DNA of 64,000 bases from contig NZ_CP132542.1 in NCBI RefSeq assembly GCF_030845175.1, forward strand, positions 2,949,501-3,013,500, written 5' to 3'. Positions 15,395 through 25,000 of the stretch are shown piece by piece. The first letter of the stretch is position 1. Each line of letters opens with the position of its first letter. The DNA is from Coralliovum pocilloporae. GTDB taxonomy: Bacteria; Pseudomonadota; Alphaproteobacteria; Rhizobiales; Cohaesibacteraceae. Under the pieces are notes generated by a model. The model did not search any database, was not told the origin of the DNA, and was given only the letters and a program-made list of their open reading frames with translations. The position numbers and the translations under genes are program-made.

Positions 15395-17143
15395 ATGACA
15401 CAGAAAAACAAAGGTTATCGTTATCTCCAGCTCGCGTTTCAGCGGTGCAAGAGCGGCCTCTACGGCATTGCCGCATTCAGCTTCCTTATCAATCTGCTGA
15501 TGCTGGCCGGACCGCTCTATATGATGCTGGTGTATGACCGGGTTCTTGCCAGCCAGAGTGTTCCGACACTTGTGGGCATCAGCGTTCTGATTGGTGGCCT
15601 CCTTCTGGCACAGGGCATTCTCACCATGATCCGTTCCCGTATGCTGATCCGTGTCGGCAACCGGTTGAGCCAGTCAATGGAAGAGGTGGTTTTTCATGCT
15701 CATGTGGAGAAATCGGTTCAGAAAGGCGCGTCATCGGCTCAGACCCTGCGTCAGCTGAAGACTCTCCGCGAATTTCTTGGCGGCTCGACCCTGCCGGTTC
15801 TGTTCGATGCTCCGTGGGCGCTCATCTATATCGGTGTGGTCTATCTACTGCATCCGGTCCTCGGTCTTATCTCCCTGGCGGGCTTTGTCGTCCTGCTTCT
15901 GTGTGGCATCGCCAATGAATTCTTCACCCGCGGTCGCCTGCGTGAGGCTGCCGAATGGTCTCATGAGAGCGGCAAGCTGCTGGGTGATACAATGCGCAAT
16001 GCAGAAGTGGTCTCCGCTCAAGGCATGACCGCGCGTCTTTTCAAGCGCTGGACCAAACTGGAAAGCCGGGCTCAGTATCGCCAGAGCAAGGCCAGCGATG
16101 TGTCGTCTGATTTTGGCGCGATGTCCCGCACAGTGCGTCTGATCCTGCAGTCAATGATCCTTGGCACAGGTGCCTATCTGGCCATTCAGGGACAATTGTC
16201 TCCCGGCGCAATCATTGCGGCCTCTATCATCATGGCGCGTGGTCTGGCTCCGGCAGAGCAGGCAATTACCGGCTGGAAACAGTGGCTGACAGCCCGTGCG
16301 GCCTACCGGACCCTTAAGCTGGATCTGATGGAATTTATGCTTGAGCAGCCGCGTATGACGCTGCCGAAGCCAAAAGGCTCGCTGATCGTGCGTCAGGCCT
16401 ATATTGCCGCGCCGAACAGCACCAAGCCGATCCTGAACAATGTCTCGTTCAGCCTTGCAGCCGGTGACGTGCTCGCAATTATCGGCCCGAGTGGCTCCGG
16501 CAAATCAGCCCTTGCCCGTTCACTGGTGGCGGCATGGCCTGCCATGCGGGGAACCATCCGCCTGGATGGGGCGGATCTGACCCAGTGGAGCAAGAACCAG
16601 CTTGGCGATGCCATCGGCTATCTGCCGCAGGATGTGGAGCTTTTCGATGGGACCGTTCGTGAGAACATCGCTCGCTTTGCTGATGAGATCGACGACCGCG
16701 AGGTGGTCGAGGCTGCCAAAAAGGCTGGCGCTCACGGGCTGATCCTGTCTCTGCCGAACGGCTATGAAACCCGCATCGGCGAAAGTGGACGGCATCTGTC
16801 CGGTGGCCAGCGCCAGCGGATCGGTCTTGCCCGTGCCATGTTCGGCAATCCCTGCCTCATCGTTCTGGATGAGCCGAATTCCAATCTCGACAGTCTGGGT
16901 GACGTGGCTCTGCATGATGCCATTCGCTCCTGGAAGGAGGAGGGACGGACCGCGATTATCGTTTCTCACCGTCCGAGTGCGGTGGAACTGGCCCACAAGG
17001 TTCTGGCGCTCGATAACGGTCGTGTCCGCGCCTTCGGGCCGAAGGACCAGATCCTCAAAACAACAGATCGCGGTACCATGATTGCATCTGGTATCGCATC
17101 CGGAATGAGCCAGAGCCGTACGGCTGCGGTTGCAGCAGAATAG
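15395..17143 (+). CDS. Type I secretion ABC transporter/ATPase (PrtD-like)
   Basis: A 582-residue fused permease-ATPase. The N-terminal half has the membrane segments of an ABC exporter; the C-terminal half has Walker A GPSGSGKSA (near 364), signature LSGGQRQR (near 468), Walker B LIVLDEPNSNLD (near 488) and the H-loop IVSHRPS. There is no C39 peptidase domain. The ALIYIGVVYLLHP segment is typical of the PrtD/AprD family. It is placed between the RTX substrate and the membrane fusion protein, so it most likely exports that RTX protein. The outer-membrane TolC partner is not in the window. Confidence 0.93.
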   Translation: MTQKNKGYRYLQLAFQRCKSGLYGIAAFSFLINLLMLAGPLYMMLVYDRVLASQSVPTLVGISVLIGGLLLAQGILTMIRSRMLIRVGNRLSQSMEEVVFHAHVEKSVQKGASSAQTLRQLKTLREFLGGSTLPVLFDAPWALIYIGVVYLLHPVLGLISLAGFVVLLLCGIANEFFTRGRLREAAEWSHESGKLLGDTMRNAEVVSAQGMTARLFKRWTKLESRAQYRQSKASDVSSDFGAMSRTVRLILQSMILGTGAYLAIQGQLSPGAIIAASIIMARGLAPAEQAITGWKQWLTARAAYRTLKLDLMEFMLEQPRMTLPKPKGSLIVRQAYIAAPNSTKPILNNVSFSLAAGDVLAIIGPSGSGKSALARSLVAAWPAMRGTIRLDGADLTQWSKNQLGDAIGYLPQDVELFDGTVRENIARFADEIDDREVVEAAKKAGAHGLILSLPNGYETRIGESGRHLSGGQRQRIGLARAMFGNPCLIVLDEPNSNLDSLGDVALHDAIRSWKEEGRTAIIVSHRPSAVELAHKVLALDNGRVRAFGPKDQILKTTDRGTMIASGIASGMSQSRTAAVAAE

Positions 17144-17154
17144 AGGTTAGGACA

Positions 17155-18462
17155 ATGAAAAAGCTGACACAGAAAAAAGCACCAACAGGCCTCCTGCGCT
17201 GGGGCTTCCTCGGGCTGGTCATTTCCGGCACCATGGTTGGCGGCAGTCTCGCCTGGTCTCTCACCACAAGCATTGACGGAGCGGTGATCGCCCCCGGACT
17301 GGTGATGGTGGAAAGCAACCGCAAGACCATCCAGCATCTGGAAGGCGGGATCATCCGCGATATCCGGATCAAGGAAGGGGATCTGGTCAAGGAAGGCGAT
17401 ACGCTGATTGTCCTTGATGATACGGAATCCAGCGGCGAATTGCTGGTGCTGAGGGATCGACTGGCCGATTTCAAGGCCCGAAAGGCGCGCCTCAGCGCCG
17501 AGCTCGAACTGGCAAGCGACGTGTCTTACCCGCAATCGCTTTTGGCCCGTGCCGATGAAGCCAAGATTGCCGCCCTGATCCAAACCCAGAACAGCCTTTT
17601 CCTGTCGCGCAGCGCAGCACGGGAGGCCCAGGCGGCCCTTCTTGGCAAGCGGATTGATGCGCTTAAGGCCGAGCGATCCAGTCTCACCAAACAGACCGCG
17701 TCCCTGCGCAAGGAAATGGCATTGCTTGAAGAGGAAAACGGGGTTCTGTCCAAGCTCAACAAGCGTAACCTGGTGCCGATCTCGCAAGTCCTGTCTGTCC
17801 GCCGCAATATTGCCCGGACGGATTCCCAGATTGCCAATAATGACGGACGGTTTGAAAGCCTTGCAGCACAGATCCTGCAGATCAAGGCCGAGAAGGCGCA
17901 GATGAAGTCCGGATTCCTTGAGACGGTGGCGACCGAACTTGCCAATGTGCAGTCGGAAATCCATACACTCAGCGAGCGTGAGGCGACCTTTATCGACCGT
18001 CAGGGCCGCAAGAAGATCATCGCACCCAAGACAGGCCGGGTTCTGAACCTGCAATATTACACGGTCGGTGGTGTTATTCCGCCAGCCCAGGCGATTATGG
18101 ATATCGTGCCCAGTGCTGATGCTCTTGTTCTGACGGCTCGTGTGCCGGTGAATGATATTGATCTGGTTTCCGCCGGTATGGACGCCCGGGTGCGTCTCAC
18201 GGCGTTCAACCGCAATGCAACACCGGAGTTCTCCGGCACGGTCGAGAGCATTTCCGCAGACAGCATTGTCAACGCGGAAGATGGCACAGCCCACTACAAT
18301 GCCCGCATTTCCCTGAACAAGCAGGAACTGCAGGACGCGAAACTGGAGCTGGTCCCGGGCATGCAGGTCGAGACCATGATCCTGACAGGTGAGCGGCTTG
18401 TCGCATCCTATCTGGCCCGCCCGCTGAAAGACGGCTTCAGCCGATCCTTCAGGGACGAATAA
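17155..18462 (+). CDS. Type I secretion membrane fusion protein (HlyD/PrtE-like)
   Basis: A 435-residue periplasmic adaptor. It has a short cytoplasmic N terminus, one membrane span (about 15-37), a lipoyl-like half with LEGGIIRDI and KEGDLVKEGD, a long coiled-coil region (about 100-270) and the C-terminal beta-barrel. It links the ABC exporter to a TolC-type channel. It starts eleven bases after the exporter gene. Confidence 0.92.
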   Translation: MKKLTQKKAPTGLLRWGFLGLVISGTMVGGSLAWSLTTSIDGAVIAPGLVMVESNRKTIQHLEGGIIRDIRIKEGDLVKEGDTLIVLDDTESSGELLVLRDRLADFKARKARLSAELELASDVSYPQSLLARADEAKIAALIQTQNSLFLSRSAAREAQAALLGKRIDALKAERSSLTKQTASLRKEMALLEEENGVLSKLNKRNLVPISQVLSVRRNIARTDSQIANNDGRFESLAAQILQIKAEKAQMKSGFLETVATELANVQSEIHTLSEREATFIDRQGRKKIIAPKTGRVLNLQYYTVGGVIPPAQAIMDIVPSADALVLTARVPVNDIDLVSAGMDARVRLTAFNRNATPEFSGTVESISADSIVNAEDGTAHYNARISLNKQELQDAKLELVPGMQVETMILTGERLVASYLARPLKDGFSRSFRDE

Positions 18463-18513: not shown

Positions 18514-19338
18514 TCAAGAGCGTATCGGTGTTTCTCCTGGCACCGATACGCTTTGCTGTTTGTCTACAACGGGTTTCGCCGCGCTGAGCCAATAGCCCAG
18601 TCCCATGATGACAGAACCAGACAGAGCGTTGCCGAGGGTGACATAGGCAAGATTGCGGATCGCGCCTGCCAGGGTGATGGTCTCGGGATGATCAGACAGC
18701 AGGGCGACGGAAAAGACCGTCATGTTGGCGACGCTATGCTCAAAGCCTGCGGCGATGAAGGCATACAGGCACCAGAAGATAATGATGCATTTGAAGACGT
18801 CATTACTGCTGCGGGATGAACACCATAACGCGAGACAAACCAGCCAGTTACAGAGAATAGCTCGTGCAATCAGCTCAAGAGCCGGGGCGTTCATCTTCTT
18901 TGCGGCAACCGCGTGAAGAAGCGCGGGATCTGAATGCCCGACAACCAGTCCGCCGCCGCCCATGATGAACAGGAGCGCAAGAAGGCCGGCACCAGCCAGA
19001 TTCCCCACCCAGCTCATGCCCCAGCATCTGAAGAGATCAGGCAGGCGCACCTGTCGGGTGAGCCAGCCGATGGTCATATACATGGTATGGCCGGTAAACA
19101 GCTCCGCTCCGGCAAAGACCACGAGCGTCAGTGCGATCCCGAAGCTGGCCCCCATGACAAGAGGCCGGATTGAAGCGTCAACCCCTTGACCAACTGAAAA
19201 AATCAGCAGGATTCCGACACCGACATAGGCTCCGGCTTTCATGGCCAGAACGAGAAAAGCCAGCGGGTTCGTTTTCACGGAAACACTTTTGGCTTCCGCA
19301 AGATTGGAAAACAACAGAACGGTCTCTTTCAGCGTCAT
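18514..19338 (-). CDS. Formate/nitrite transporter family channel
   Basis: A 274-residue FNT-family membrane protein with about six helices. Family traits include the SFGIALTLVVFAGAELFTG stretch with its N-terminal half-helix, and the second half-repeat containing ANMTVFSV. It would pass nitrite, formate or a similar small anion across the inner membrane. The ATG at 19338 lies in an ATGA overlap with the preceding membrane-protein gene, so it belongs to the presumed NO reductase operon. The open frame extends upstream to 19887, but that part is antiparallel filler over the neighbour. Its final codons overlap a hairpin. Confidence 0.88.
   Translation of the reverse strand: MTLKETVLLFSNLAEAKSVSVKTNPLAFLVLAMKAGAYVGVGILLIFSVGQGVDASIRPLVMGASFGIALTLVVFAGAELFTGHTMYMTIGWLTRQVRLPDLFRCWGMSWVGNLAGAGLLALLFIMGGGGLVVGHSDPALLHAVAAKKMNAPALELIARAILCNWLVCLALWCSSRSSNDVFKCIIIFWCLYAFIAAGFEHSVANMTVFSVALLSDHPETITLAGAIRNLAYVTLGNALSGSVIMGLGYWLSAAKPVVDKQQSVSVPGETPIRS
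18519..18552 (+). terminator. Hairpin, likely terminator of the type I secretion operon
   Basis: A perfect 12-bp stem (18519-18530 against 18541-18552), extendable by two pairs, with a ten-base loop and then TTGCTGTTTG. It lies inside the last codons of the opposing FNT gene, so it serves two convergent transcripts or only the plus-strand one. Confidence 0.6.
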
Positions 19339-19883
19339 GAGAACCCTCGTTTGATAAGGCGTTCGGCAGGCAATGCACCAAACAGCAGGGGCCACCCCCA
19401 GAGAATGATCAACCCGGCAGCAAGGTAGAGAAAGCCATAGCCGAGCCGTTCCTGATCGGAGACCAGGTAGGAATTGCAGATGCGCACCGGCGCGTGAATA
19501 TAGAGAAAGCCGAGAACTCCCAGCATGGAGAGCGCGTTTGCCTTGAGGAACCCGCGCAACATGGGGGTGAGTGATGACCAGCACAGGGTAAAAGGCACTC
19601 CAGCCAGAAGCGGTAGAGTGATGAATTTCGCTCCATCGACCCACAAGGAGCCAAGCGCCGCATCGATGCTTCTCGGAAGCATCCAGAAAGCCAGGGTGAA
19701 CAGGGCTACAATCAACAGGCTGTAACGGTCCCTGCTGTTTTGGAAGCCCCAGGCCCCTGCGACGCCAATGCCGACCAGAAGAGGAATCTGGACGAGCACA
19801 TGAATGACAGGATCCCGCTCCGCATGGGGGATGAGCCAGAGTGCGGCAATCAGCATGAGGAGGGCGAGGGGAAGACGGATCAT
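19335..19883 (-). CDS. Membrane protein of the norYS-senC cluster (orf1-like)
   Basis: A 182-residue hydrophobic protein with about five or six membrane segments and no recognised catalytic motif. It overlaps the SCO gene upstream by four bases and the FNT gene downstream by four. In ammonia oxidisers the NO reductase cluster norS-norY-senC is followed by an unassigned membrane-protein gene called orf1, and this protein has the same place. Similarity to that protein was not tested; only the context is seen here. Confidence 0.7.
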   Translation of the reverse strand: MIRLPLALLMLIAALWLIPHAERDPVIHVLVQIPLLVGIGVAGAWGFQNSRDRYSLLIVALFTLAFWMLPRSIDAALGSLWVDGAKFITLPLLAGVPFTLCWSSLTPMLRGFLKANALSMLGVLGFLYIHAPVRICNSYLVSDQERLGYGFLYLAAGLIILWGWPLLFGALPAERLIKRGFS

Positions 19884-20479
19884 CCAAGCCGTTCCTTCAC
19901 CGCTTCTGCCACCTCTGCCACGGCATCAATGTCATAGAGGGCTGCAAACCGGCCTGTGCGGTCAATCAGAAGGATAGCGGCATTGTGCTGGAAACCGCCC
20001 CATTCATCCGGGATGACGGTCACCTCGAAAGTCGAAAGCAGGGCCTGGAGGTCTCTTGTCTCGGGTCGTGCGACTGTCCAGCGCCTGCCATCTGCGCCAT
20101 GGGCTTCTCCATAGTGGCGGAGAGCATCTGGCGTATCCCGCTCCGGGTCAAAGCTGACAGACAGCATCCGAACCGGCAGACCCTGCTCCTCCAGCCTGTC
20201 CCGCAGGGTCGAGAAGTCTATGGCGGCCAGCTGGCAGATATCCGGGCAGGTGGTGTAGATAAATTCCACCAGAACGATCTCGCCGTTCTCGGGTTTCAGC
20301 GGAATGGAATGCCCGTCCATCGCCTGAAGAGTCACATCAGGCACCGAACGGGGGGCTTCGGCAATGGCAATCCGCCTGGCGCCTTCGGCTGTGACAGCAC
20401 GAAGGCCGTCTGTTGCCTGCCAGAAAAGCCCGCCGCCCGTTAGGGCCAGGGCGGCGGGCAAGAGGAGGGAGCGGATCAC
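19880..20479 (-). CDS. senC: SCO1/SenC family copper chaperone
   Basis: A 199-residue thioredoxin-fold protein anchored by one N-terminal membrane segment. The copper ligands of the SCO family are present: Cys78 and Cys82 in TTCPDIC, and His165 in FQHNAAIL. It would deliver copper to the CuA site of the subunit II encoded two genes upstream. I chose the GTG at 20479, preceded by GGAGGGA; it overlaps the stop of the subunit I gene by four bases (GTGA). The frame is open further upstream only as a shadow of subunit I. Confidence 0.9.
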   Translation of the reverse strand: MIRSLLLPAALALTGGGLFWQATDGLRAVTAEGARRIAIAEAPRSVPDVTLQAMDGHSIPLKPENGEIVLVEFIYTTCPDICQLAAIDFSTLRDRLEEQGLPVRMLSVSFDPERDTPDALRHYGEAHGADGRRWTVARPETRDLQALLSTFEVTVIPDEWGGFQHNAAILLIDRTGRFAALYDIDAVAEVAEAVKERLG

Positions 20480-21912
20480 ATCTCCCTCCGGGGGGTTACA
20501 AGACGGATGGTATAGGCCAGTACAAACCACAGGGTGCCGAGCACAATCAGGATGGCAAACAGAGTGCCTATCTGGCTCTGCAGCATCCATTCTGGGAAAT
20601 GCACAGCCCAGCGGCGGGGAATGGAGCTGGCGCCTGAGACGAGGAAGACCAGAACAAACCCGATGGCCCCGGCCACGTAGGTAATGAACGCAGCCTTGTC
20701 GAGGCCGGTCAAGGTGGCGGTCTGCTGACCACGGACCAGCCAGGCCATGAAGCCGAAGGCCATCGCCACTTCGCCCAGCAGCAGATAGGTGTGGAAATGC
20801 CCCGGTACCCACTGGGTGTTATGCATCACCTTGTTGACGGTGATCATACCGTCAATGGTGGCCGGGATGGACCCGATGGACCAGCCGATGACTGAAATGA
20901 CGAGCAGGGCAGAGGCCAGATCCCACCTGATGCCGGACCCGCGCAGATAGATGCACAGAGAAAAGGCTGTGACTGCCAGAAGTGGAATGCCGCTGAAGTA
21001 GGAGACAAGCTGACCGATGACCAGCATCCACGGCGGCATGACCACATCCTGCAGCAGATGATGCCAGTAGACAGCCATGACGAAGAAAAGGATTGCGGTC
21101 CAGGCGAGGACAAACACCTTGGTGGTCTTCCACGGGCGCCCCGTATATTCGGGGATGATCTCATAGACAGCAACCACGGCCATGTAGATGGCAGCGTTGA
21201 TGAAGACATGGCCAAAGAAGAAGATGAGGTTCTTTGCCAGAAGCGCATCCACCTCAAAGCCGGGGATCAGAAGATGAACAAGGCTGGCAACCAGTACGGC
21301 AGCCCCGAGAATAATGCCGATCGAGTTGAAGATTGTCACCGCAGCAGCAGCAACGATCGTCGGCGGTGGTACGTCATCGGTCTTGCCTGCGAAAACGAAT
21401 GACCAGCCGAGCGCCTTGCCCAGCGAGCCGTAGCGCTTGATGATCTTGAGACCAAGCTCGAGATAGTAGAGCAGAAAACCAACCCCGATCAGCGTGTAGC
21501 CAATCATGAAAAGGGCAGCGGACCAGAGTTCCCAGACACCGCCGGACTGGGCAGGAAGGGGAAACAGGAAGGTCCAACCGCCAGCATATCCGCCAATGAA
21601 GATTGACGTGAGAATAGCAATGACGCCCGCCAGAAACAGGCCGATAAAGCCCCAGAAAATGCCATGATTAAGCGGCAGATGCCGTCCGGCGAAATACCAG
21701 AGGATGGCTGCACCGGAAAGGCCTGCAGTTCCAACCATACCTGCACCATGGGCCGTCAGGATCTGGTAGAACAGATCAGCTTCAAGTGGCAGCCAGCCAG
21801 CCTGAGCAGCCCTCATTGCGACACCAAGAACCATCATCAGCGCGAAAACGGCTCCGGATATCAGCATGGTGAATTTCACCGCACCGGCCTGCGGGGGAAG
21901 TTCCGTCTGCAT
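20476..21912 (-). CDS. norS: Heme-copper oxidase superfamily subunit I, probably sNOR-type nitric oxide reductase
   Basis: A 478-residue protein with about twelve membrane helices. All six metal-binding histidines are present: His55 (LTAHGAGM), His235 (FGHVFIN), His284-His285 (YWHHLLQD), His372 and His374 (PGHFHTY). Four residues after His235, where oxidases of the A and B families carry the cross-linked Tyr, this protein has Asn239. That loss argues against an oxygen reductase and fits the sNOR branch of B-family-related NO reductases. The gene order subunit II, subunit I, SenC, membrane protein and the divergent nsrR support this. A B-type oxidase is the alternative. Confidence 0.8.
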   Translation of the reverse strand: MQTELPPQAGAVKFTMLISGAVFALMMVLGVAMRAAQAGWLPLEADLFYQILTAHGAGMVGTAGLSGAAILWYFAGRHLPLNHGIFWGFIGLFLAGVIAILTSIFIGGYAGGWTFLFPLPAQSGGVWELWSAALFMIGYTLIGVGFLLYYLELGLKIIKRYGSLGKALGWSFVFAGKTDDVPPPTIVAAAAVTIFNSIGIILGAAVLVASLVHLLIPGFEVDALLAKNLIFFFGHVFINAAIYMAVVAVYEIIPEYTGRPWKTTKVFVLAWTAILFFVMAVYWHHLLQDVVMPPWMLVIGQLVSYFSGIPLLAVTAFSLCIYLRGSGIRWDLASALLVISVIGWSIGSIPATIDGMITVNKVMHNTQWVPGHFHTYLLLGEVAMAFGFMAWLVRGQQTATLTGLDKAAFITYVAGAIGFVLVFLVSGASSIPRRWAVHFPEWMLQSQIGTLFAILIVLGTLWFVLAYTIRLVTPRREM

Positions 21913-22436
21913 CAGTTTTTCTCCTCTGATGATGTGGTTTCAGAGACCGTGAAACTGTTAATCATGTCGTGATGGGCGACACCGCAATATTCAAGGCACA
22001 GAATCTGATAGGTGCCCGGTTCCGTGAAGGTGTAGGTGATGGTGCTGGTATAGCCGGGTATGGCCTGGGTCTGGACCAGCAGACGCATGTCGCTGTTATA
22101 GATCCCCATGCCGTGGGTAACGTCTTCCGTTGTGACATCGAAATTGATCGGCTGGCCGAGAGGAACCTGCTCCTGATCAATCTCCCACCACCATTGCCCG
22201 CCTGTGACCGACACCGTGAACGCCTCGGATTCAGAAGCCGTGGCATGCGGCCATTCCCGCAGGGAGGCGACCGAGATGATGACACCGGCAATGGTCAAGG
22301 CCCAGATGAGGCGGGTTCTGAGACGATCCGGGTTGATATCGGGTGGTGATCCGTTGGCTGCGCGAACAGCACGCCAGAAGATCAGGGCAAGCGCGGCCAT
22401 CAGGACCAGCGCTACCGCAAGAACGGTTGGCTGCAT
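21912..22436 (-). CDS. norY: CuA-containing subunit II of the heme-copper enzyme
   Basis: A 174-residue protein with two N-terminal membrane segments (about 4-22 and 42-60) and a periplasmic cupredoxin domain. The CuA ligands are complete: His108 (VTHGMG), then Cys147, Cys151, His155 and Met158 in CLEYCGVAHHDM. The glutamate-bearing CLEYC spacing is standard. It passes electrons from a c-type cytochrome to subunit I. It is the first gene of the operon; its stop and the next ATG share one base. A palindromic NsrR-like box lies 22 bases upstream. Confidence 0.88.
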   Translation of the reverse strand: MQPTVLAVALVLMAALALIFWRAVRAANGSPPDINPDRLRTRLIWALTIAGVIISVASLREWPHATASESEAFTVSVTGGQWWWEIDQEQVPLGQPINFDVTTEDVTHGMGIYNSDMRLLVQTQAIPGYTSTITYTFTEPGTYQILCLEYCGVAHHDMINSFTVSETTSSEEKN

Positions 22437-22457: not shown

Positions 22458-22480
22458 AATATGCTTTTATAATGCGTATT
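22458..22480. promoter_or_regulatory. NsrR-like operator 1
   Basis: AATATGCTTTT and TAATGCGTATT flank a central A in an 11-1-11 imperfect palindrome, close to the known NsrR consensus built on AAGATGCATTT half-sites. It lies 22 bases before the subunit II start, where a bound repressor would block the promoter. Confidence 0.75.
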
Positions 22481-22509
22481 AAAGCGACGGGAAAGATTCT
22501 GTCAAGATA

Positions 22510-22532
22510 AATACGATTTTTAAATGCGTATT
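22510..22532. promoter_or_regulatory. NsrR-like operator 2
   Basis: AATACGATTTT, a central T, then AAATGCGTATT: a second 11-1-11 palindrome. It lies 42 bases before the nsrR start and 29 bases after the end of operator 1, so nsrR is probably autoregulated. Confidence 0.75.
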
Positions 22533-22574: not shown

Positions 22575-23045
22575 ATGCAAATTACCAAGTTCTCAGATTT
22601 CGCCCTGAGGGTGCTGATCCATCTGGCCGTTTCCGACGGTGAGTTACGCTCCACCCGCGAGTTGGCAGAGATGCATAATCTGTCCTTCAACCATCTGGCG
22701 AAGGTCACCCAGTGGCTGACCAGCGAAGGCTATGTAGACTCCATAAGAGGGCGGTCGGGCGGCCTGCGTCTTGCCATGGAGCCTAAGGATATCTCACTCG
22801 GTGCCCTGATGCGAAAGTCAGAACGGGGCTCGCCGCTGGTCGAATGCATGAAGGATGGCTACACCGGATGCTGTGTGATGACACCCGCCTGCGGGCTTCT
22901 GCCGGTGCTGCATGATGCGCAGGAGGCGTTTTTCCAGTCTCTCGATAAGCGCACCTTGGCTGATGTGATGGCAGGCAATCGCGGTATGATCAACCTGCTG
23001 AAAACACTGGAAAAGCATCGGGCAGAGGCTGAGACCTCTACCTGA
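22575..23045 (+). CDS. nsrR: NsrR, Rrf2-family NO-sensing repressor
   Basis: A 156-residue Rrf2 protein with an N-terminal winged helix (SFNHLAKV, RGRSGGLRL) and a cysteine cluster: Cys91, Cys99, Cys100 and Cys106 in a C-x8-C-x5-C pattern (Cys91, Cys100, Cys106) ending in TPACGL, the NsrR arrangement for an Fe-S cluster that NO destroys. I chose ATG 22575, where the family begins (MQITKFSD); the earlier ATG at 22524 would lie inside operator 2. It is divergent from the norYS cluster and is its likely repressor. IscR is less likely given this context and the TPACGL ending. Confidence 0.9.
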   Translation: MQITKFSDFALRVLIHLAVSDGELRSTRELAEMHNLSFNHLAKVTQWLTSEGYVDSIRGRSGGLRLAMEPKDISLGALMRKSERGSPLVECMKDGYTGCCVMTPACGLLPVLHDAQEAFFQSLDKRTLADVMAGNRGMINLLKTLEKHRAEAETST

Positions 23046-23075: not shown

Positions 23076-23576
23076 CTAGCTTTCTAGAAGAAGTCGGAAG
23101 GCATTGGCCAGCTCGTATTGGCCGCGCTGCCCTTGTAGCACCTGCTTCAGCTCTCCCTTGCCATCAAACAGCAGCAAGGTGACATGGGGAACCCGGTAGC
23201 GGCTGGCGAAGTCCAGCCCCTTGCTGGTGCGGATATCGGCGATCACATAGTCAATCCTGCCTTCATCAAACCCTTCAAGAGCGTTGCGGGTGGCTTTCTG
23301 CAGGGCCTGGCAGAGCGCGCATTCGGGATCATGAATCTGGACCACGGTCGGTGTGCCGTTGCCCACACGTGTCAGGTCATGATCATGGGCGGAACTGCTG
23401 ATTGTCTGCCCGATAAGGAGACCGCCACCGGCCAGAACAGTCAGGCCGATGGCACCATTGCGCACCTTCCTGAGAAAAGCGCGCTTGTCCTCATCAACAT
23501 CAGGCGACGCGGGTGCGGACGGAGCCTTGCGGCTCTTTGTCTGTTTGGGCTTGCGGGTTCTGTTGTTCTTTTTCAT
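23076..23576 (-). CDS. Membrane-anchored thioredoxin-like protein
   Basis: A 166-residue protein with a very basic N terminus rich in Lys and Arg, one membrane segment (about 41-58) and a periplasmic thioredoxin-like domain. A CxxC pair is present at Cys86 and Cys89 (PECALCQ), and the cis-Pro region is RVPHVTLLL. It may reduce or form disulfides, or handle metal or heme thiols; the partner is not evident. It is convergent with nsrR. Specific assignment to DsbA, TlpA or CcmG is not supported. Confidence 0.8.
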   Translation of the reverse strand: MKKNNRTRKPKQTKSRKAPSAPASPDVDEDKRAFLRKVRNGAIGLTVLAGGGLLIGQTISSSAHDHDLTRVGNGTPTVVQIHDPECALCQALQKATRNALEGFDEGRIDYVIADIRTSKGLDFASRYRVPHVTLLLFDGKGELKQVLQGQRGQYELANAFRLLLES

Positions 23577-23660: not shown

Positions 23661-24317
23661 TCAGGTGACAAGAATGCGCGCACCCGGTTTGACCCGGTTA
23701 TAGAGGTCGATCACATCCTGATTGACCAGCCGGACGCATCCACTCGAAACAGCTTTGCCGATGGAATGGGGCTCGTTGGTCCCGTGTAGCCGGTAGAGCG
23801 TGTCGACACCGTTCTGGAAGATGTAGAGTGCTCTGGCGCCAAGCGGATTGCGCAAACCCGGTGGCATGCCACCATTGCGAATGCTGTACTTCTCAAGCTC
23901 GGGACGACGGGCAATCATCTCATCCGGTGGTGTCCAGGTCGGCCAGGGGCGTTTCCAGGCCACATTGGCCCTTCCTGACCACTCAAAGCCCTGGCGACCA
24001 AGGCCGACCCCATAGCGCATGGCCGTTCCGTTCCGCTCCACCAGGTAGAGGTAGAAGCTGCTGGTATCGACCACGAGGGAGCCGGGCCGTTCATCTGTTT
24101 CATACCGGATCCGCCTGCGTCTCAACTGAGGTTTCAGAACAGAGGGGCTGATTGCCGGAAGCGGAAATTTCTCTTCAGGGCGTGGGCCGTAATCCTCAGC
24201 AAAATTGCTGATAAAAGACGGATCTCCATCACGTGTGGTCTGGCATCCGGCCAGCGCAAGTGCTGCTGCACTCGCACCGGCGCCGACAAACTGCCGCCGC
24301 GTCAGTGTTTTTCGCAT
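23661..24317 (-). CDS. L,D-transpeptidase (YkuD/ErfK) lipoprotein 1
   Basis: A 218-residue cell-wall enzyme. The N terminus has twin arginines (TRRQF), a hydrophobic stretch and a lipobox ending in Cys25 (LALAGC). The YkuD catalytic centre is complete: His178 in HGTNEP and Cys194 in SSGCVRL. It would cross-link peptidoglycan stems or attach proteins to them. The start is ATG 24317; a TTG fifteen bases upstream is possible. The next gene upstream on the same strand is a paralogue. Confidence 0.9.
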   Translation of the reverse strand: MRKTLTRRQFVGAGASAAALALAGCQTTRDGDPSFISNFAEDYGPRPEEKFPLPAISPSVLKPQLRRRRIRYETDERPGSLVVDTSSFYLYLVERNGTAMRYGVGLGRQGFEWSGRANVAWKRPWPTWTPPDEMIARRPELEKYSIRNGGMPPGLRNPLGARALYIFQNGVDTLYRLHGTNEPHSIGKAVSSGCVRLVNQDVIDLYNRVKPGARILVT

Positions 24318-24359
24318 TATTGTCACATCCAAAAAATCAGGAATTCATCGACCTGTTGA

Positions 24360-24938
24360 TCACAGCACCACAACACGGGTTCCAAGCGGAACGCGATTGT
24401 AGAGATCAATCACATGGTCATTGATCATCCGGATGCAGCCATTGGACACCGACCGACCGATTGAAGACGGCTGTGTGGTGCCATGAATGCGATAGAAGGT
24501 GTCACGTCCGCCCTTAAACAGATAGAGGGCTCGTGCACCGAGCGGATTATTGATCCCGCCGGGAACGCCTTTGGCATATTTGGCGTATTTGCGCGGCTGA
24601 CGACGGATCATGTTCTTTGTTGGCGTCCAGCGGGGCCATTCGGCTTTGCGCTTGATGGTCGCCGAACCTCTGAATGCGAGGCCTGCGCGTCCGACCCCGA
24701 CACCATAACGGCGCGCCCGACCACGTGTCTCGATCAGGTAGAGGAAGTGGTTGCGCGGATCGACCACAATTGTGCCCGGATCATACTTGGTGGAGTAGGA
24801 TACGGTCTGGGGCGCGAATTCGGGGTTCAGCTTGAAGGTCTTCTTGAACTTCTTGGTATGGTGCGCAAGGGCTTCATGAGACTGCGGTACCAACAGAGCA
24901 GCCAATCCCCCAAGCAGAAAATTACGTCTTGTAAACAC
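24360..24938 (-). CDS. L,D-transpeptidase (YkuD/ErfK) 2
   Basis: A 192-residue paralogue of the neighbouring L,D-transpeptidase with an N-terminal export signal (TRRNF, then a hydrophobic stretch, cleavage near ALA-HH) but no lipobox. Catalytic His152 (HGTTQP) and Cys168 (SNGCIRM) are present. I chose the GTG at 24938 because GGAG lies seven bases upstream; the frame continues up to a TTG at 24968. It is encoded 42 bases before the other enzyme on the same strand, so the two are probably co-transcribed. Confidence 0.88.
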   Translation of the reverse strand: MFTRRNFLLGGLAALLVPQSHEALAHHTKKFKKTFKLNPEFAPQTVSYSTKYDPGTIVVDPRNHFLYLIETRGRARRYGVGVGRAGLAFRGSATIKRKAEWPRWTPTKNMIRRQPRKYAKYAKGVPGGINNPLGARALYLFKGGRDTFYRIHGTTQPSSIGRSVSNGCIRMINDHVIDLYNRVPLGTRVVVL

Positions 24939-25000
24939 GGGTAATCTCCAAAGTTGCCATATCGTCAAAGAGCCTGATGGCTCCGGATGTCACAACAGGA

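What the first reader, a model, noticed from the sequence alone, without database searches (positions are those of the whole stretch)
19335..22436. norY-norS-senC-orf1-like cluster: probable sNOR nitric oxide reductase
Seen: CuA subunit II, heme-copper subunit I with all six His, SCO/SenC and a membrane protein, each overlapping the next by one to four bases. Known: ammonia oxidisers carry norS, norY, senC and orf1 together, assigned to an sNOR-class NO reductase. The divergent NsrR and its two sites add strong context for NO. An annotator would most likely call subunit I a cytochrome oxidase. In a heterotrophic alphaproteobacterium this type is little studied.
Basis: partly seen in the sequence, partly recalled or inferred. 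Interest (0 to 1): 0.75.

Follow-up and report, generated by a model that had tools for sequence, protein, structure and literature searches.

The report
NsrR-controlled sNOR nitric oxide reductase operon
This is a five-gene operon for an sNOR-type nitric oxide reductase (an enzyme that annotators usually mistake for an oxygen-using cytochrome oxidase) with a nitrite channel, under a nitric oxide-sensing repressor; it is a good new member of a known, still unpurified enzyme class, not a new kind of system.

Summary
On the minus strand lie norS (CuA subunit II), norY (subunit I with all six haem/CuB histidines), senC and orf1, overlapping by 1-4 bases. A divergent NsrR sits upstream with two NsrR boxes, the best two of the 64 kb.

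The cross-linking tyrosine of O2 reductases is asparagine (N239), the published sNOR signature, invariant in every relative. Subunit I falls with ammonia-oxidiser sNORs and Ruegeria (Silicibacter) pomeroyi, and apart from ba3 oxidases (100/99 support). The gene order matches ammonia oxidisers, including orf1. The refutation test was not met.

The genome is a complete NirS-cNOR-NosZ denitrifier without NsrR boxes in that cluster, so sNOR is a second NO reductase, probably for detoxification.

sNOR was already listed in a close relative, so this is a new member of a known kind. The NsrR boxes and the recurrent nitrite channel bear on the open NO-versus-O2 dispute. No activity is shown here.

The parts
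21912..22436 (-). norS: CuA subunit II, 174 aa, two N-terminal hydrophobic helices, CuA ligands H, C, E, C, H, M present
   Evidence: COX2 Pfam match; aligned to ba3 CuA subunit; ligands conserved in sNOR loci; helices by hydropathy
20476..21912 (-). norY: catalytic subunit I, 478 aa, 12 membrane helices, six ligand His, Asn239 in place of the cross-linking Tyr
19880..20479 (-). senC: SCO/SenC copper chaperone with CPDIC motif; GTG start overlaps norY by 4 bases
   Evidence: SCO1-SenC Pfam match 6e-20; sequence
19335..19883 (-). orf1: six-helix membrane protein, probable assembly factor or third subunit; overlaps senC by 4 bases
   Evidence: no Pfam match above cut-off; HMM finds it at the same place in the amo-bearing nitrifier family, E 1e-57 to 1e-62; model pLDDT 93.6, no PDB fold match
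18514..19338 (-).
   Evidence: Form_Nir_trans 1e-62; NirC model 272 bits, cut-off 293, versus FocA 164; beside sNOR in 31 of 63 loci
22575..23045 (+). nsrR: NO-sensing Rrf2-family repressor, divergent; likely true start is the second ATG at 22575 (listed ORF starts 22524)
22458..22480 (.). NsrR box 1, overlaps the putative -10 of the norS promoter
   Evidence: 19.9 bits, best site of the 64 kb and best strict match of the genome
22510..22532 (.). NsrR box 2
   Evidence: 17.0 bits, second best site of the 64 kb
22476..22505 (-). putative sigma-70 promoter of norS: TTGACA (22505-22500), 18 nt, TAATAC (22481-22476), read by eye
   Evidence: sequence; not reported by the automatic scan, which demands T at the last -10 position

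Best explanation
A translationally coupled operon norS-norY-senC-orf1-nirC that encodes a cytochrome c-dependent, haem-copper nitric oxide reductase of the sNOR family with its copper chaperone, its membrane assembly or accessory protein and a nitrite channel. Electrons pass from a periplasmic cytochrome c to CuA in NorS, then to the low-spin haem and the haem-CuB site of NorY, where two NO are reduced to N2O; Asn239 replaces the tyrosine that O2 reductases use. NsrR binds two palindromes in the divergent promoter, one over the norS -10, and represses; NO attacks its Fe-S cluster and releases the operon. In this genome the enzyme is a second NO reductase, kept apart from the NirS-cNOR-NosZ denitrification cluster, and most likely removes toxic NO (inferred). 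The channel probably lets nitrite leave or enter as N oxides are handled (inferred). Shown: gene content, ligands, Asn239, clade, gene order, boxes. Inferred: NO-reducing activity, NO-induced expression, electron donor, direction of nitrite flow.
For: Asn239 and six His by alignment to ba3, invariant in the sNOR rows. Tree: one N-type clade at 100/99-100, apart from ba3 O2 reductases, which pair with eNOR. Gene order norS-norY-senC-orf1 in the amo-bearing family, two loci followed by an octahaem protein as in Nitrosospira (PMC4940428). R. pomeroyi ortholog 74% identical with the same NsrR/operon layout; Silicibacter listed as sNOR with active-site N. NsrR boxes: 26 of 29 loci with nsrR beside the operon, 11 of 31 without, scored with the locus left out; in the home genome a strict palindrome has only three sites, two of them here, control 0. 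The purified B. azotoformans CuA-NOR also has Asn in place of the Tyr (PMC3475470). Home genome has NirS, cNOR, NosZ, aa3 and cbb3 elsewhere.
Against: No sNOR proper appears to have been purified in the literature held; PMC6967387 argues that N. europaea sNOR may be a high-affinity O2 reductase because it rises under O2 limitation. In the ammonia-oxidiser loci no NsrR box was found (best 5.4 bits), so NO control is not universal. NsrR scores below its curated cut-off. bNOR, gNOR and qNOR sequences are not in the tree, so its outer placement is incomplete.
Confidence: 0.82

Rival explanations
1. The enzyme is mainly a high-affinity cytochrome c oxidase that keeps respiring O2 in the presence of NO; NO reduction is a side reaction.
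For: Proposed for N. europaea sNOR from transcript rises under O2 limitation and from B-type affinity (PMC6967387). CuB His set complete and partial K-path retained: Y248 and T312 of ba3 correspond to invariant Y250 and T315.
Against: The cross-linking Tyr is Asn in every member. Not nested in ba3 O2 reductases. NsrR boxes on the promoter. The genome already holds aa3 and a cbb3 oxidase. Other K-path residues are lost (Y244 to V246, S309 to L311).
Confidence: 0.1
2. A true sNOR, but part of respiratory denitrification for energy rather than NO detoxification.
For: The genome carries NirS, cNOR and NosZ, so NO is made in the cell; ammonia oxidisers carry sNOR beside cNOR.
Against: Separate location (2.97 against 2.09-2.12 Mb) and regulator; no NsrR box in the denitrification cluster (best 7.7 bits), which has a Crp/Fnr-type regulator instead.
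Confidence: 0.2
3. The Asn-type enzyme belongs to bNOR (CuA-NOR type I) or another relative rather than sNOR.
For: bNOR also has Asn, CuA, SenC and a six-helix protein (PMC3475470); no bNOR sequence was available for the tree.
Against: Subunit I is short with 12 helices and NorS has two N-terminal helices, as in the shorter type II form and unlike type I; clade and gene order match amo-family norSY and Ruegeria.
Confidence: 0.06

Closest known systems
sNOR of ammonia-oxidising bacteria (norSY-senC-orf1, Nitrosomonas, Nitrosospira, Nitrosococcus)
   Same: Gene order, Asn active site, CuA subunit, orf1, a formate/nitrite channel beside it in the ten classical loci examined; NorY 48-54% identical
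   Different: No NsrR box in the amo-family loci tested; there the cluster may stand next to hao; here a denitrifying heterotroph with NsrR control
Ruegeria (Silicibacter) pomeroyi DSS-3 megaplasmid SPO_RS20760-20740
   Same: 74% identical NorY, divergent Rrf2 regulator with box, norS-norY-senC-orf1-nitrite channel in the same order
   Different: On a megaplasmid beside cbb3 genes and followed by a cytochrome c; annotated as cbb3-type oxidase
Bacillus CuA-NOR (qCuANOR; type I = bNOR, type II shorter)
   Same: CuA subunit, Asn for Tyr, SenC and a membrane protein (PMC3475470); type II shares 12 helices in subunit I and two in subunit II
   Different: Type I is longer, quinol and cytochrome c dependent and purified; not sequence-compared here
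ba3-type B-family O2 reductase (Thermus 1EHK)
   Same: Fold, six His, CuA subunit
   Different: Tyr237 present; separate clade
eNOR
   Same: Haem-copper NOR with cupredoxin subunit
   Different: Gln at the Tyr position and a different clade

Membership tests
sNOR | Asn in place of the cross-linking Tyr in subunit I | tested here: met
   N239 by alignment to ba3 Y237, invariant in relatives; signature from PMC8756737 Table A4
sNOR | CuA-bearing subunit II (NorS) | tested here: met
   COX2 match and full CuA ligand set
sNOR | Gene set norSY-senC-orf1 | tested here: met
   Same order here and in the amo-bearing family, orf1 by HMM E about 1e-57 or better
sNOR | Subunit I in one clade with known sNORs, outside O2 reductases | tested here: met
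   100/99 clade with amo-family NorY and Ruegeria; ba3 group apart
sNOR | Reduces NO to N2O with cytochrome c as donor | not testable with these tools
   needs enzyme assay
sNOR | No proton channel (predicted 0) | tested here: inconclusive
   two of four K-path residues checked are kept, Y250 and T315; two lost
ba3-type O2 reductase | His-Tyr cross-link residue | tested here: not met
   Asn239
ba3-type O2 reductase | Clusters with B-family O2 reductases | tested here: not met
eNOR | Gln at the Tyr position | tested here: not met
cNOR/qNOR | NorB-type subunit I with NorC or fused haem c fold | tested here: not met
   subunit II is CuA type; the genome's own cNOR is a separate distant gene
bNOR (CuA-NOR type I) | 13-helix subunit I and one-helix subunit II | tested here: not met
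   12 helices and two helices (PMC3475470); no direct sequence comparison possible
NsrR | Rrf2 protein with three cluster cysteines | tested here: met
   Rrf2 match and conserved Cys pattern
NsrR | NsrR-type palindrome at target promoters | tested here: met
NsrR | Curated NsrR model cut-off | tested here: not met
   107 bits against 182, though the best-scoring of the Rrf2 models; so 'works like NsrR' rests on cysteines, boxes and context

The most novel reading that the evidence does not exclude
sNOR and a NirC-type nitrite channel form one functional unit for handling NO together with nitrite: the channel adjoins sNOR in 31 of 63 loci from Alpha- and Gammaproteobacteria, ammonia oxidisers, Nitrospinota and Thermomicrobium, and in many genomes the whole unit is under NsrR. 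I found no description of this link in the papers searched.
Probability: 0.35. Interest if true: 0.55.

Novelty: new member of a known kind. Interest (0 to 1): 0.42.

Why it matters
Whether sNOR reduces NO or O2 in vivo is disputed, and nearly all data come from slow nitrifiers that are hard to work with. NsrR boxes on sNOR promoters across several classes, and a near-dedicated NsrR regulon in this genome, argue for NO, and they point to tractable heterotrophs such as Ruegeria pomeroyi, where a deletion can settle it. It also warns that such genes are annotated as cytochrome oxidases, so N2O-forming capacity is undercounted. The recurrent nitrite channel is a part of the system that the norSY-senC-orf1 description leaves out.

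Tried and rejected
A loose IUPAC NsrR pattern on the genome was too noisy (335 hits against 259 in the control) and was replaced by a strict palindrome. The PDB fold search of orf1 gave nothing (best E 2.5); comparison of orf1 with the Caa3_CtaG protein that follows the channel in the Thermomicrobium operon was not significant (probability 1.3%), and DUF1404 is only a weak lead (15 of 48 members, best E 8e-4). The PNAS 2024 paper that defines the NOR families is not held. None of the first 21 sNOR genomes carried AMO genes, so an ammonia-oxidiser family had to be found separately. A copper nitrite reductase in the home genome was looked for and rejected (22 bits against a 296-bit cut-off); NirS is the nitrite reductase. 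The idea that box conservation is a by-product of how training sites were chosen was checked by leaving each locus out and by loci never used in training, such as L138-L153.
Full report
OBSERVATION. The minus strand carries norS (21912-22436), norY (20476-21912), senC (19880-20479, GTG start) and orf1 (19335-19883), overlapping by 1, 4 and 4 bases. A fifth gene, a NirC-type formate/nitrite channel (18514-19338), follows with one more 4-base overlap. Pfam and NCBIfam name the parts COX2, COX1, SCO1-SenC, formate/nitrite transporter and an Rrf2 regulator; orf1 has no family.

ACTIVE SITE. Alignment to Thermus ba3 places all six histidines (H55, H235, H284, H285, H372, H374) and shows that Tyr237, the residue cross-linked to a CuB histidine in O2 reductases, is Asn239 here. 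Asn is invariant in all sNOR rows examined, while A-family and ba3-type rows have Tyr, eNOR rows Gln and cbb3 rows Gly at the aligned place. The CuA ligands of NorS are complete. The predicted structure of NorY (pLDDT 90) has 12 membrane helices and matches haem-copper oxidases. PMC8756737 (Table A4, after Hemp and Gennis 2008) gives Asn as the sNOR residue and lists Betaproteobacteria, Silicibacter, Deinococcus and Geobacillus. PMC3475470 reports Asn in the purified Bacillus CuA-NOR as well, and describes a shorter type II with 12 helices in subunit I and two in subunit II, the architecture seen here.

TREE. With 59 haem-copper rows the window sits in an N-type clade (100/100); ba3-type O2 reductases form their own group (100/99) and pair with eNOR, not with the window. 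To tie the clade to real ammonia-oxidiser sNORs, a family whose member G159 has three identical amoA copies was found and searched: 25 of 120 genomes hold a NorY, nearly all full-length and 48-54% identical. Ten of eleven fetched loci show norS-norY-senC-orf1 in order, two followed by an eight-haem protein and two tetrahaem proteins, the arrangement published for Nitrosospira (PMC4940428). A second tree with these rows keeps all N-type proteins together at 100/99, apart from ba3. Limits: no bNOR, gNOR or qNOR rows were available, and the midpoint root is for drawing only. Identification of the family as ammonia oxidisers rests on amo copies and hao context, since genome names are withheld.

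CLOSEST RELATIVE. Ruegeria pomeroyi DSS-3 (formerly Silicibacter) carries a 74% identical NorY on its megaplasmid with the same divergent Rrf2 gene and the same five-gene order, annotated as 'cbb3-type cytochrome c oxidase subunit I'. That the literature's 'Silicibacter sNOR' is this gene is an inference; its chromosome was not searched.

REGULATION. A 23-bp matrix built from 19 boxes of other loci, with the window left out, ranks 22458-22480 (19.9 bits) and 22510-22532 (17.0) first and second in 64 kb; the next site outside this promoter scores 8.2. Shuffled intergenic DNA reached the best score in 1 of 5000 trials, and a 3.9 Mb Markov sequence had no site of 17 bits or more. Across loci, with each locus left out of its own matrix, 26 of 29 with nsrR within 1.6 kb have a box of at least 12 bits, against 11 of 31 without; loci never used in training, such as L138, L139, L140, L147, L150 and L153, confirm it. 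In the whole genome a strict palindrome has three sites, two of them here, none in the reversed control. Box 1 overlaps a putative -10 (TTGACA-18-TAATAC), which suits a repressor. NsrR is known to sense NO through an Fe-S cluster (PMC2577008, PMC11500311, abstracts), and an NsrR gene lies near sNOR in Nitrosococcus oceani by locus tag (PMC3772326). The amo-family loci lack boxes, so this control is common but not universal.

GENOME CONTEXT. The genome has one each of aa3, cbb3, cNOR and sNOR subunit I. NirS, cNOR and NosZ lie together at 2.09-2.12 Mb with a Crp/Fnr-type regulator and no NsrR box. It is thus a complete denitrifier from nitrite to N2 with a second, separately regulated NO reductase. 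Detoxification is the likelier role, by inference; a similar pairing of sNOR with another NOR is usual in Bacillota (PMC11388526).

NITRITE CHANNEL. A formate/nitrite channel lies within 4.5 kb of norY in 31 of 63 loci, including ten of eleven loci of the amo-bearing family, Nitrospinaceae and Thermomicrobium roseum; nsrR-like genes in 28 of 63. Loci are not fully independent. The classical norSY-senC-orf1 description omits it, and the passages I read of an FNT survey report no link to NO reductases (PMC5525234). Nitrite transporters are known or predicted NsrR targets elsewhere (PMC1274295), so nitrite export during nitrosative stress is a reasonable but untested role.

VERDICT. A well-supported sNOR operon under NsrR: a new member of a known kind. 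Its value is that it speaks to the unresolved NO-versus-O2 question (PMC6967387) in organisms where it can be tested, and that it adds a recurrent nitrite channel to the module.

Noticed in passing
home genome C1:716082-716104 (L217:4083-4105): A third NsrR-like palindrome (17.3 bits) lies about 60 bases upstream of a Rieske-cytochrome b-cytochrome c1 operon, the complex that feeds cytochrome c-dependent NO reductases; could be chance.
   Followed up: partly
window 23076-23576, minus strand: A 166-aa thioredoxin-like protein (HDPECALCQ) with an N-terminal membrane anchor and no Pfam match, convergent with nsrR.
   Followed up: no
L055, L121, L213: A deep, long-branched N-type group (Thermomicrobium roseum and two others, 33-35% identical); orf1 was not found beside any of the three, and a Caa3_CtaG protein follows the channel in T. 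roseum. Possibly a separate NOR family.
   Followed up: partly
home genome, e.g. C1:43896, 3081626, 3383830, 3650157; L169:6904: A near-identical 23-base word AATGGGCATGAGCAATGAGTCTT recurs at many places, probably part of a dispersed repeat.
   Followed up: no
L011, L014, L023, L033, L155: Further strong NsrR-like boxes (23-31 bits) occur elsewhere in several sNOR loci, suggesting neighbouring NsrR targets.
   Followed up: no
window 23661-24332 and 24360-24968, minus strand: Two adjacent related genes that look like L,D-transpeptidases.
   Followed up: no
window 15395-18462, plus strand: ABC transporter and HlyD-like pair (looks like type I secretion) that ends convergently at the operon's 3' end, with a strong hairpin at 18517-18554.
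   Followed up: no
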